NCBI RefSeq assembly: GCF_019048845.1
Contig: NZ_CP077425.1
Location: forward strand, 620,001-684,000
DNA: 64,000 bases
From: Vibrio mimicus
GTDB lineage: Bacteria > Pseudomonadota > Gammaproteobacteria > Enterobacterales > Vibrionaceae
Reading direction: 5' to 3'
Both the position numbers and the translations under genes were made by a program. Of this stretch, positions 55,631 through 64,000 are shown in pieces; within the stretch, counting starts at the first letter, position 1; the number at the start of each line of letters is the position of its first letter. The notes under the pieces were generated by a model. The model had not been told where the DNA came from. It saw nothing but the letters and a program-made list of their open reading frames with translations, and searched no databases.

Positions 55631-56735
55631 TTAATCTACCCAATCATCACGGCTAGTAAAACCATCTATGTATACCATTGGTGTCATAGAGCTTATTACT
55701 TTTTCAATCTTCTCATTGATCATTTTTACTTCGTCATCAGTCGCTCTATAAGAAGATGATAGTTTATTGTCTCCAGTTAACTGTTTAAAAAGCATAGAAT
55801 AATAATATCTTTCATGTTCATCCTGACTATTGAAATAATTCTCATATATTTCAAAGGTGGATCGATCCTAAACGAGTCAGTTGTTCCATACGCTTTGTAA
55901 ATATTTCTTCATCAAGATCAACTTCTAATAGTCTTTTTATTGCTGGTATGTAATTATTATTAGACGCAATTGTTAATAAATCAATAGCCAAATTATACTG
56001 TTCTGTTGTTCTGGCTTCGTACTTATCTTTACCCTGTGGACGAGTTAAAATGGTATTTACATAGTCCATTAAGGGTTGGTAATAATGAGCTTGAGAAAAG
56101 CGAATCACCTCTTGAATATGCTGAGCACGAGTCTCTTTCGATTGGTCTAACTCTTGCTGTTGTAGTAGAAAATATTGAGCACGCAGATCGCCTTGCGCTG
56201 CGAGAGGTTTAAAAAGCTCGATGGCTTTTTGAAAATTATCGTCTGTGCAAAGTCGAGCTGAATTCGGATCACTAATTCCTAAGGATTTAACAACCTGACT
56301 ATCTAATGATTCTGACCCTAAATAAGCACAAGCAAGGCTATTTTTTGCGATAGCTAAAGCTGCGTATGGATTACCCGAGGTTAATGACTTAAAGATTAAA
56401 TTTGTAACTTCGCGTCTCTTATTATTATCTAAAAGTATCATTTTTGCGTACCACAACATTGCATCAGAATTACCTTCTTCGATTAGAACGAGTAACCCAC
56501 TCTTTGCTACACTCCATTTCCCATGCTGAATATTGACCAATATGTCATACATCTTATCTCCCGGCTTTACGGTGATCGAGATATAAGGATCAGCTGATTT
56601 TTTATTAATATTTTCGGTAATAAATGGCTGAAATAGGGCAATATCATCTTGTGGGTTAGGCTTACAAGCCACCAGCCCAATCATAATACTCATCAGCAAG
56701 ACAAGTCGGGCTGATTGAAAAAACTTCATGGGCAT
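55631..56735 (-). pseudogene. Second T6SS immunity-type lipoprotein copy, frameshifted
   Basis: A tandem copy of the immunity gene beside it. It opens at 56735 (MPMKFFQSARLV, lipobox LVAC) and the frame ends early at 55851 after LTRLGSIHL. Reading on in the other frame gives STFEIYENYFNS and ends MVYIDGFTSRDDWVD, identical to the end of copy 1, with stop at 55631-55633. The break is at 55859-55868, where GGATCGATCC looks like GGATCC with GATC doubled; removing four bases gives LGSTFE and a 366-residue protein. The 294-residue product might still be made, and if the C terminus is dispensable it could function. Confidence 0.85.
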
Positions 56736-56741
56736 ATCTTG

Positions 56742-61505: not shown

Positions 61506-62033
61506 TTACACCCACAGCTTAAAAATCGGCGAGGTCAGGTTAACGGCTTGAGAAGGTTCAGACACTTGAGGTGGATAGTGCAATGTTTGTCTATGATGTG
61601 CGGTATCCACCCAATGAATAGCCTGAGCTGGACCTAATAGGGTTGCAATGTCTATATCGTTCAGCTGTGATGCGGTTTGATTCCAAAAAGCATTGGTATA
61701 AAACCGTAAAAAACAGGCTTTATTATCAATCTTAACCTGAAGTAGTGACTGTAAATATTCGGTGAATTCAAATCCATCGTGGCGAGAATCTAACTCAAAT
61801 ATCACTGAACTTGAGTCAAAATTGGGAAGGGTTAGCCACTTTTCTAATACTGCACTATGACTACCGATGTTAAGTAGCAATGGGCTTTTGTCCTGCAAAT
61901 AATCAAAATCGGAACCTGCGAATAAAACTATCGCTTGCTCGACTTTCATCTTATTGGTGATTACCGATATCGCATCAGGGATACGAATCGTATCCACCAC
62001 TAACCAATAATTAATGGTATTCCGTTGACTCAT
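61506..62033 (-). CDS. DUF4123 T6SS effector adaptor (chaperone)
   Basis: A 175-residue protein of the DUF4123 (Tap/TEC) family: PLLLNIGSHSAVLEKWL, VIFELDSRHDGFEFTEYL and ACFLRFYTNAFW are the usual conserved pieces. Such adaptors hold a toxin and load it on the tip of VgrG. It overlaps vgrG by 4 bases (ATGA) and precedes the effector by 2, so the three are one translational unit. Equivalent in position to VasW at this V. cholerae locus; whether it is an orthologue or a module-specific version cannot be told here. Confidence 0.92.
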   Translation of the reverse strand: MSQRNTINYWLVVDTIRIPDAISVITNKMKVEQAIVLFAGSDFDYLQDKSPLLLNIGSHSAVLEKWLTLPNFDSSSVIFELDSRHDGFEFTEYLQSLLQVKIDNKACFLRFYTNAFWNQTASQLNDIDIATLLGPAQAIHWVDTAHHRQTLHYPPQVSEPSQAVNLTSPIFKLWV

Positions 62034-64000
62034 GAGGCACCTCGTTCACATGGACAATCACCTCGTGGACATGAGCCATCGCTTTGTCTTTGACACATTT
62101 TTGCAAGCGGTACGTTTGCCATTGCTAAGGTTGCCATCGTGGGCGCTGAAAGTTGTAGAGGTAATGGATTAGGCGCAGCAGGGGTGGCCTTCATCTGATG
62201 TGGCAACTCGGCCACTTTACCGCCATAACCTGAACCGCTGCCCGCGCTACCACCGGAGTTGAGGTTAATGGCTGAGCCTACTACGTGCACACCGCCGGCA
62301 TCGACTTTGATAAAACTGCCACCCGCTTTGATGGTAAGTTCATTGCCTGCTTCCAAAACCAGTTTGTTACCTGCTTTAAGGTGAACCTCAGTACCTGCAT
62401 CGTAAATCACTTTGCTGCCAATTTTTTGCTGCAATGAACCGCCGATTTCGCTGCTGCTGTCGAGTTTGACGAGCGTACGACTTTCCCCCTCGACCGTCAG
62501 GTGTTGGTTGTGCTTAATCTGGGTGAACTGGTCATTTTCAACGGTCAGGTGTTGGTCGTGGCGAATGACCGTGGTGTGGTCGTTTTCAATCAAACCATCA
62601 AAGTCTTTCTGTGCATGCAGGTAGATTTGCTCTTTGCCCGCTTGGTCTTCAAAACTGAGCTCGTTAAACCCTTCCCCTTGATGAGTCTCGGTGCGCAGCA
62701 CGGTTTTGGTTTTATGCTCTGGCAAGGTGTATGGCGGCGTATTGGTCGCGTGATAAGTTCGCCCAGTGATGATCGGTTGGTCTGGGTCACCATTTAAGAA
62801 AGAAACAATCACTTCATGGCCGATGCGCGGAATGGCGATAAAGCCGTATTGGCTGCCCGCCCAACCTTGTGACACACGCACCCAACATGAACTCTGCTCA
62901 TTGCCATTGGAATAACGGTCCCACGGGAAGTGGATTTTCACCCGCCCATGTTCATCACAGAAGATTTCTTCGCCTTCAGGGCCGACGACCGTGGCTATCA
63001 TTGGGCCATCGACTTGCGGTTTAGGTTGTGGCTCAGCACGCCAGTGGAGATGTCCCGGAATTAAGCTAAATTGGTTACTGTAAGTAGTAGCGCCACTACC
63101 GCCCTCTTCTTGTAACGCTTGCGGCTGCTCACCTTGGTGGTTAATCGACACTACCACCCAATCGCGGTTCATCGCGGGGTCAAGGTGCTCTTGCAGGTCA
63201 AACTTATAGCCGGCACGCAGCAGCGGCTCATTGCTCAGCCCTGTCGCAATGTGGGCATGGCGGCGCAAGTAGTCCAAGCGGATTTGGTTAAAAGCTTCAC
63301 CGTTTACATCGTCTTTGTAACGCCCCGGCGCATCAAAGTGTTGGTAACGGGTTTGCTGATAATCTAGCTCAGAGCCCTGCACGGTTTGTAAAAACGAGTA
63401 CGCCGGCTTTTTGAAGCTGTAGTCTTTGAGCTGAACTTCGCTCACTTCTGCTTGGGTACGATAAGTTAAACCTTGGATATACGGGGTATCTATCGCGCCA
63501 CCGGCTAAAGCGTTGTATGGGATAGGCTCCGGCAGTTTGCTTAGGCTGTCACTGGCATCACTGAAATAAAGGGTATGTTTGCCCGCTTCATGCACAAAGC
63601 TGTACACCAAACCTTCTTCGGCGGCGAGGCGGTGTAGGAAGTCGATATCACTTTCACGGTACTGCACACAGAACTCACGCTGCACGCAATCACGCTTGAG
63701 CGCAAAAGCGTAATCGTTGATACCCATCTCTTGCAGCAAGATAGAGAGAATTTCTGGGACGGTTTGCTTTTGGAAAATGCGGCTATTGTGGCGCAGGGAT
63801 AAACGCTCTAAGGCAGGGACTAAAGTGAGTTCGTAGAAAGTATGGTGATGGCCGATATCGCCTTGACTGAAAGCGCGCACAATACCATGCACGCGCTGCA
63901 CCAGTTGTGAGTTGCGGTAAAGCTTGAGCTCAGCACGCTTATCCACCATCTGCTCGGCGGTGAGGTTTGATACCCGACTCGCCAGTTGCACTTCGTAGCG
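62030..64000 (-). CDS. vgrG: T6SS spike protein VgrG (5' end outside window)
   Basis: The C-terminal 656 residues of a VgrG. The gp27-like base includes DFLHRLAAEEGLVYSF, the gp5 OB-fold has GPEGEEIFCDEHGRVKIHFPWDR and SQYGFIAIPRIGHEVIV, and the needle is a beta-helix of repeated short units (HLTVENDQFTQIKHNQHLTV to INLNSGGSAGSGSG). The tail then changes to a Pro/Ala-rich linker and a Cys-rich end (MCQRQSDGSCPRGDCPCE). The frame runs off the window at RYEVQLASR, so the true start is missing; a GTG at 63991 is internal. It tops the T6SS tube and carries the adaptor-effector complex. Closest in position to vgrG-2. Confidence 0.95.
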   Translation of the reverse strand, partial: RYEVQLASRVSNLTAEQMVDKRAELKLYRNSQLVQRVHGIVRAFSQGDIGHHHTFYELTLVPALERLSLRHNSRIFQKQTVPEILSILLQEMGINDYAFALKRDCVQREFCVQYRESDIDFLHRLAAEEGLVYSFVHEAGKHTLYFSDASDSLSKLPEPIPYNALAGGAIDTPYIQGLTYRTQAEVSEVQLKDYSFKKPAYSFLQTVQGSELDYQQTRYQHFDAPGRYKDDVNGEAFNQIRLDYLRRHAHIATGLSNEPLLRAGYKFDLQEHLDPAMNRDWVVVSINHQGEQPQALQEEGGSGATTYSNQFSLIPGHLHWRAEPQPKPQVDGPMIATVVGPEGEEIFCDEHGRVKIHFPWDRYSNGNEQSSCWVRVSQGWAGSQYGFIAIPRIGHEVIVSFLNGDPDQPIITGRTYHATNTPPYTLPEHKTKTVLRTETHQGEGFNELSFEDQAGKEQIYLHAQKDFDGLIENDHTTVIRHDQHLTVENDQFTQIKHNQHLTVEGESRTLVKLDSSSEIGGSLQQKIGSKVIYDAGTEVHLKAGNKLVLEAGNELTIKAGGSFIKVDAGGVHVVGSAINLNSGGSAGSGSGYGGKVAELPHQMKATPAAPNPLPLQLSAPTMATLAMANVPLAKMCQRQSDGSCPRGDCPCERGAS

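What the first reader, a model, noticed from the sequence alone, without database searches (positions are those of the whole stretch)
55631..64000. T6SS auxiliary module with a LysM effector instead of the VasX-type toxin
Seen: vgrG - DUF4123 - 1238-aa LysM protein - lipoprotein immunity genes, all coupled by overlaps or 2-7 base gaps. Known: at the vgrG-2 locus of pandemic V. cholerae the effector is VasX (colicin-like, with a PH-type N terminus) and the immunity protein is a membrane protein. Here the effector begins with LysM, has only two internal hydrophobic segments and no recognised toxin domain, and the partners are lipoproteins. Inference: a different effector type acting in the periplasm of prey, with peptidoglycan binding at its N terminus.
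Basis: partly seen in the sequence, partly recalled or inferred. Interest (0 to 1): 0.75.

Follow-up and report, generated by a model that had tools for sequence, protein, structure and literature searches.

The report
LysM T6SS effector with swapped specificity segment
A Vibrio weapon cassette carries a large toxin of an already catalogued LysM type; comparison with relatives suggests that its far end, not the LysM end, pairs with the protective protein, and that a short recognition segment in both partners is exchanged between lineages like a changed lock and key.

Summary
In detail: vgrG, DUF4123, a 1238-aa LysM protein and two lipoprotein genes are tightly coupled, between malQ-glgB-hcp and a MAPEG gene (aux-2). 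VasX_N does not match. But LysM effectors at Aux-2 are already in print (PMC5527308, PMC6691524), so the type is not new.

What is added: (1) Given the rest of the effector, immunity identity tracks only the C terminus (905-1238, strongest 1086-1175), not LysM. (2) All 34 immunity homologues examined have an export or anchor sequence (14 lipoprotein, 16 N-terminal anchor, 4 signal peptide; read by eye), pointing to the periplasm. (3) Effector and DUF4123 DNA is 92-95% identical to V. furnissii, flanks mostly 73-84%, but effector residues 1021-1080 fall to 51%. The two immunity paralogues differ in a segment of their own; IMM2's resembles the V. furnissii immunity protein, and its 3' part is out of frame. 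IMM2 reads as a decaying immunity gene against the V. furnissii-type allele.

The killing mechanism is unproven. Four amphipathic strands, no significant PDB fold match and no obvious catalytic set favour membrane damage from the periplasm (about 0.45).

The parts
62030..64000 (-). vgrG (TssI), cut by the window edge; 698 aa whole in the own genome
   Evidence: TIGR03361 604 bits; L039 10030-12126
61506..62033 (-). DUF4123 adaptor/chaperone, 175 aa
   Evidence: PF13503 42 bits, cut-off 25.8; Tle1 chaperone Tla1 46 bits, below its cut-off of 200
57787..61503 (-). LysM cargo effector, 1238 aa
   Evidence: ORF; matches in 53 of 227 Vibrio genomes at E<=0.001, own genome included, some matches partial
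61351..61488 (-). LysM domain, effector residues 6-51
   Evidence: PF01476 36.3 bits
58678..59193 (-). four long amphipathic predicted strands, effector residues 771-942
   Evidence: AlphaFold2 secondary structure; family dyad contrast P 0.003, 0.00005, 0.0013, 0.00145, uncorrected
57790..58677 (-). C-terminal tip, residues 943-1238: helical part then small beta part; the part that co-varies with immunity
   Evidence: partial Mantel; variability dips; truncated effector copies before immunity genes
58264..58443 (-). exchanged segment, effector residues 1021-1080
   Evidence: 51% nt identity to V. furnissii (50 aligned codons) against 87-98% in the other bins
56742..57803 (-). IMM1, lipoprotein immunity protein, 353 aa
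   Evidence: overlaps the effector gene; lipobox; Sel1 repeat below cut-off
57354..57590 (-). variable segment of IMM1, about residues 72-150
55851..56735 (-). IMM2, paralogous immunity gene, 294 aa, shortened at its 3' end
56241..56522 (-). variable segment of IMM2, resembling the V. furnissii immunity protein
   Evidence: columns 121-180 of the common alignment: IMM2-V. furnissii 93 and 81%, IMM1-V. furnissii 31 and 33%, IMM1-IMM2 31 and 33%
55631..55850 (-). 3' part of IMM2 in another frame
   Evidence: three-frame translation; described only
55170..55643 (-). MAPEG gene, downstream flank; start uncertain (157 aa here, 128-129 aa in other loci)
   Evidence: PF01124 91 bits; MAPEG homologue also in L040, L042, L070, L078

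Best explanation
This is the aux-2 effector-immunity cassette of a Vibrio T6SS. The LysM protein is a cargo effector, loaded on VgrG by the DUF4123 adaptor (inferred from known Tap/Tec systems, recalled). Its C-terminal tip (about 943-1238) is the part neutralised by the periplasmic immunity protein IMM1 (supported by co-variation, not shown by experiment). It acts in the prey periplasm (inferred from immunity location), most likely by damaging the inner membrane through the amphipathic strands next to the tip (inferred, about 0.45). In the window's clade, specificity lies partly in a short segment of the tip (1021-1080) and a segment of the immunity protein (about 72-150); both look replaced by recombination inside an otherwise similar cassette. 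IMM2 is a decaying orphan immunity gene whose variable segment matches the V. furnissii immunity protein, and so presumably that effector allele.
For: Co-variation: 27 effector-immunity pairs, 11 regions; partial r with immunity identity given the rest of the effector is 0.53 for 1086-1175 (0 of 2000 permutations as high), 0.19 for 1005-1085 (2 of 2000), 0.19 for 1176-1238 (0 of 2000), 0.15 for 905-1000 (29 of 2000); the seven regions of residues 1-904 lie between -0.13 and 0.06. Over 561 pairs of 34 rows, tip-immunity given core r=0.72, core-immunity given tip 0.11; in the 36 pairs with core identity over 0.85 tip and immunity identity have Spearman 0.62. Immunity export: 14 lipobox, 16 N-terminal anchor, 4 signal-peptide-like of 34, by eye (L046 read again); the effector tree needs 3 changes of mode where 2 is the least possible. 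Cassette exchange: tiles over effector and DUF4123 are 91.7-94.5% identical to V. furnissii, flanks mostly 73-84%. Segment replacement: residues 1021-1080 51% nt, third positions 30%, neighbouring bins 89 and 97% nt. IMM2-V. furnissii match. In L054 an intact and a truncated copy are 98-100% alike over 401-920 and 57-90% over 1001-1238. Killing of the parent by V. cholerae that took up a LysM Aux2 operon is in print (PMC5527308, passages read).
Against: No toxicity or secretion data for this protein. Whether the 692-79 effector is a homologue was not tested. Over 37 immunity pairs of the wider family the immunity protein varies most at residues 221-340, not at 72-150 as in the window's clade, and many effector pairs dip most at 1121-1160 rather than at 1021-1080. 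Some pairs go against the trend (L049 and its second copy: tip 0.73, immunity 0.83; L051-L093: tip 0.52, immunity 0.62). Homologous rows are not independent points. Immunity location was read by eye, without a signal-peptide program. No PDB fold match with E<=0.001 for either model; models are middling (mean pLDDT 71.9 and 66.7). The N-terminal body has invariant polar residues (C81, D89, Y92, N371, Q380, E570, S575), so an enzyme there is not excluded.
Confidence: 0.62

Rival explanations
1. The effector is a peptidoglycan or other envelope enzyme of an unrecognised fold, placed on the wall by LysM.
For: LysM; OmpA or PG_binding_1 modules in relatives L096 and L128; periplasmic immunity; E1047 and N984 in 43 of 43 and T988 in 42 of 43 rows of the C-terminal alignment.
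Against: No hydrolase family over its cut-off in Pfam or NCBIfam; PDB sequence matches are to LysM proteins, apart from weak matches elsewhere; no obvious His/Asp/Cys/Ser set conserved in the tip.
Confidence: 0.25
2. Colicin-like alpha-helical pore former working like VasX but from another family.
For: Hydrophobic stretch 984-1010 in a mostly helical tip; VasX is called membrane-disrupting in PMC3988814 (passage read); its colicin-like nature is recalled.
Against: VasX_N not found in the effector; only one hydrophobic stretch in the tip; no colicin among the 50 rows listed in each Foldseek search against PDB; the immunity proteins have a single lipid or membrane anchor by eye, not several membrane passes.
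Confidence: 0.15
3. The effector acts in the cytoplasm and LysM serves loading only.
For: VPA1263 has MIX and LysM needed for secretion and a DNase end (PMC12724144, passages read).
Against: All 34 immunity homologues examined look exported or anchored outside the cytoplasm.
Confidence: 0.08

Closest known systems
LysM Aux-2 effector of V. cholerae 692-79 and the 'LysM-like' Aux-2 class (PMC5527308 passages; PMC6691524 one section)
   Same: Same locus type, LysM, adjacent immunity gene; transferred by homologous recombination.
   Different: Sequence relation not tested; no toxin end, immunity location or specificity segment in the passages read.
Immunity gene arrays of V. cholerae and relatives (PMC5361080, passages)
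   Same: Extra immunity genes behind the cassette; partial effector copies left by displacement.
   Different: Here a sub-domain segment looks replaced inside an otherwise similar effector and immunity gene.
VasX / TsiV2 (pandemic aux-2)
   Same: Same locus; an adaptor gene beside it (recalled).
   Different: No VasX_N match; the immunity protein is a lipoprotein with weak Sel1/TPR likeness.
LysM peptidoglycan hydrolase effectors of Acinetobacter (PMC6833914, passages)
   Same: LysM and T6SS cargo.
   Different: Those are listed with amidase, CHAP, M23 or M15 domains; none found here.

Membership tests
Aux-2 T6SS cargo cassette | hcp-vgrG-adaptor-effector-immunity in aux-2 synteny | tested here: met
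   vgrG length equals that given for V. fluvialis tssI2_b in PMC5371669 (passages); that glgB and malQ flank aux-2 in V. cholerae is recalled
VasX family | VasX_N domain (PF20249) | tested here: not met
   no Pfam match of that name at E<=1; the own-genome search rang nowhere, controls included, so it shows nothing
LysM-like Aux-2 class | LysM effector at Aux-2 with adjacent immunity gene | tested here: met
LysM-like Aux-2 class | homology to the V. cholerae 692-79 protein | not tested
   sequence not fetched
T6SS peptidoglycan hydrolases (Tae/Tpe) | recognised catalytic domain | tested here: not met
Polymorphic toxins | variable C-terminal tip paired with adjacent immunity | tested here: met
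Polymorphic toxins | unrelated toxin domains behind one shared N terminus | tested here: inconclusive
   tips of the close family are homologous; in a number of distant relatives the profile match ends near A2 position 325-330, before the tip, in others it goes on
Beta pore-forming toxins | significant fold match to a solved member | tested here: not met
   no PDB match with E<=0.001
Beta pore-forming toxins | membrane insertion | not testable with these tools
   only strand amphipathicity was measured

The most novel reading that the evidence does not exclude
A T6SS effector family that inserts amphipathic beta hairpins into the prey membrane, a kind of pore former of which I know no T6SS example (recalled, not searched exhaustively), held in check by a periplasmic helical-repeat protein through short recognition segments that recombination exchanges separately from the rest of the cassette.
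Probability: 0.2. Interest if true: 0.75.

Novelty: new member of a known kind. Interest (0 to 1): 0.42.

Why it matters
LysM Aux-2 effectors are listed in the literature, but in the passages I read without a located toxin end or an immunity mechanism. This comparison gives testable borders for the tip, places immunity outside the cytoplasm in all 34 homologues examined, and offers natural allele pairs (window against V. furnissii 89% and V. pacinii 76-77% identical overall, and V. aestuarianus in two ORFs) that diverge sharply in one short segment: a natural experiment on effector-immunity specificity and on non-self immunity.

Tried and rejected
Chimera of a shared front with unrelated tips inside the close family: rejected, the whole protein aligns across 29 rows. 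VasX allele: rejected on PF20249. PDB profile matches of A3 to designed helical proteins (E about 0.001) were set aside as coil-like. Foldseek against PDB and viral structures gave no match with E<=0.001; weak matches to parasporin-2, gasdermin, aerolysin and porins are not evidence. Of seven predicted strands tested, three (682-697, 715-738, 758-765) showed no significant alternation and four did; none of eight helices did (no correction for the number of tests; strand borders come from the models and were moved by one or two residues). The same test on the single sequence gave four of seven strands under 0.05.

Rows dropped or chosen: the test used 27 of 34 pairs (near full-length effectors only), and its script fills missing cells with the mean where there are any. 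The tree used 29 rows longer than 1100 aa, 28 of them labelled; it warns of long branches L049, L058, L050, L046 and L063. L047 has no immunity homologue found beside its effector. Alignment A3 left out several hits, among them L068, L072, L075, L077, L078, L096-L100, L122-L132, L133 and the second copy in L054. Loci were picked by hand from the hits, together with three own-genome stretches. In one search two exceptions to the flank range were seen upstream (90% over 189 bases at hcp, 85% over 52 bases), downstream tiles went as low as 67%, two tiles had no match, and one tile near MAPEG was 95% over 147 bases.

Paper searches used. I found no mention of the specificity segment in what I read; only passages or single sections were read, supplements were not, and subscription papers are mostly not held.
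Full report
What is there. The window's end holds, on the minus strand, vgrG, a DUF4123 gene, a 1238-aa LysM protein and two lipoprotein genes, coupled by overlaps of 4 and 17 bases and gaps of 2 and 6 bases. Pfam finds LysM at residues 6-51 of the effector and no other family over its cut-off; in NCBIfam no family passes its cut-off for the effector. Upstream in the own genome lie hcp, glgB and malQ (named by me from the sequence), downstream MAPEG. PMC5371669 (passages read) gives 2,097 bases for V. 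fluvialis vgrG tssI2_b, the relative of VCA0018; the window's vgrG is also 2,097 bases. So this is the aux-2 locus. One VipB (TssC) gene is present in the genome.

Relatives. The effector has matches in 53 of 227 Vibrio genomes at E<=0.001, some partial; the C-terminal profile A2 has matches in 53 of 226 in the genus, 12 of 345 in the order, six of them Vibrio, and 5 of 369 in the class, the own genome included each time. Named relatives: V. furnissii 89%, V. pacinii and V. aestuarianus 76% in the best segment; on plasmids, V. maritimus 48.5% and Salinivibrio proteolyticus 43.9% for the C-terminal part, annotated 'LysM domain-containing protein' with 'sel1 repeat family protein' behind. Of the 40 loci annotated, 29 hold vgrG, DUF4123, effector and immunity homologue, and 13 hold two or more immunity homologues.

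Already known. PMC5527308 (passages) reports a LysM domain-containing effector in the Aux2 operon of V. cholerae 692-79 that potentially targets peptidoglycan, and killing of C6706 by transformants that took up that operon. PMC6691524 (section 6) lists 'LysM-like' among Aux 2 effectors. PMC5361080 (passages) describes immunity gene arrays and displacement of effector genes. The type is therefore not new.

Where the toxin end lies. In 38 pairs over 62% identity identity is above average at 921-1000 and below it at 1001-1080, 1121-1160 and to the end; another dip lies at 281-360. Immunity identity, given the rest of the effector, tracks only the regions from 905 on, most of all 1086-1175. Five loci carry 5'-truncated effector copies, not cut by a contig end, before an immunity gene; their match starts at effector residue 365 (L054), 512 (L045), 775 (L076), 898 (L066) and 946 (L049), so there is no fixed cassette border. 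L061 and L062 are similar but lie at contig ends. In L054 the two copies are 98-100% alike over 401-920 but 57-90% over 1001-1238.

Where it acts. Of 34 immunity homologues, 14 have a lipobox, 16 an N-terminal anchor and 4 a signal-peptide-like start, read by eye. The effector tree needs 3 changes of export mode, where 2 is the least possible for three modes. A conserved location with changing anchors argues for action in the periplasm.

Exchange in two layers. Against V. furnissii, 600-base tiles over effector and DUF4123 are 91.7-94.5% identical, over the immunity genes about 85-86%, and over the flanks mostly 73-84%, with the exceptions told under Tried and rejected: the cassette was exchanged between lineages. 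Inside it, residues 1021-1080 have 51% DNA identity and 30% at third positions, with 89% and 97% in the neighbouring bins; V. pacinii and V. aestuarianus dip at the same place (43 and 35% amino-acid identity). Divergence at silent sites too points to replacement by recombination, not to point changes alone. In the common alignment IMM1 and IMM2 are 76-100% alike at columns 31-90 and 181-270 except 78% at the last block listed, but 31 and 33% at columns 121-180; there IMM2 is 93 and 81% like the V. furnissii immunity protein and IMM1 31 and 33%. At columns 241-270 IMM2 is 100% like IMM1 and 66% like V. furnissii, so IMM2 is a mosaic. Its 3' part lies in another frame.

Against this reading. In the wider family the immunity protein varies most at residues 221-340, not 72-150 (37 pairs), so the segment pair of the window's clade may not be general. 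Relatives are not independent points. IMM2 may be inactive. Nobody has shown toxicity of this protein in what I read.

How it may kill. Two AlphaFold2 models agree on long strands up to residue 942 and a helical tip, at middling confidence; in the second, residues 640-725 and the stretch about 797-847 are under pLDDT 50. Four consecutive long strands alternate polar and apolar residues. Invariant polar residues of the tip are N984 and E1047 (43 of 43), with T988 in 42 of 43; no usual catalytic set is seen. No PDB fold match with E<=0.001. Membrane damage is my first choice, at about 0.45; an unrecognised enzyme is the main rival.

LysM. Relatives L096 and L128 carry OmpA, and L128 also PG_binding_1, and no LysM, which fits a wall-binding role. 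L094 has LysM; 13 other proteins of those two calls show no Pfam family at E<=0.01, and the remaining one is the VgrG beside L096's relative. In one search, L073, L074 and L072 also lack LysM. So a wall-binding module is common but not needed for the family.

Noticed in passing
L134 and L135 (own genome, C2 about 1.26 and 2.43 Mb): Two vgrG loci lie in an inverted duplicate of about 7.6 kb, 97% identical; their DUF4123 matches score alike.
   Followed up: partly
L042 (V. aestuarianus), 2122-5831: The effector homologue is in two ORFs, divided near residue 887; not mended.
   Followed up: no
L096, L128: Distant relatives with OmpA, and in L128 also PG_binding_1, instead of LysM.
   Followed up: partly
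L138 (V. maritimus plasmid NZ_CP090440.1): T6SS genes (tssM, hcp, PAAR, vgrG) beside the cassette and an S-type pyocin gene nearby; tblastn found three places on this record.
   Followed up: partly
L093 (another family of the order): Its effector nests inside a Vibrio clade next to L051 with full support, which suggests transfer between families.
   Followed up: partly
L094, L133: Long immunity arrays: six and five immunity homologues behind one effector.
   Followed up: no
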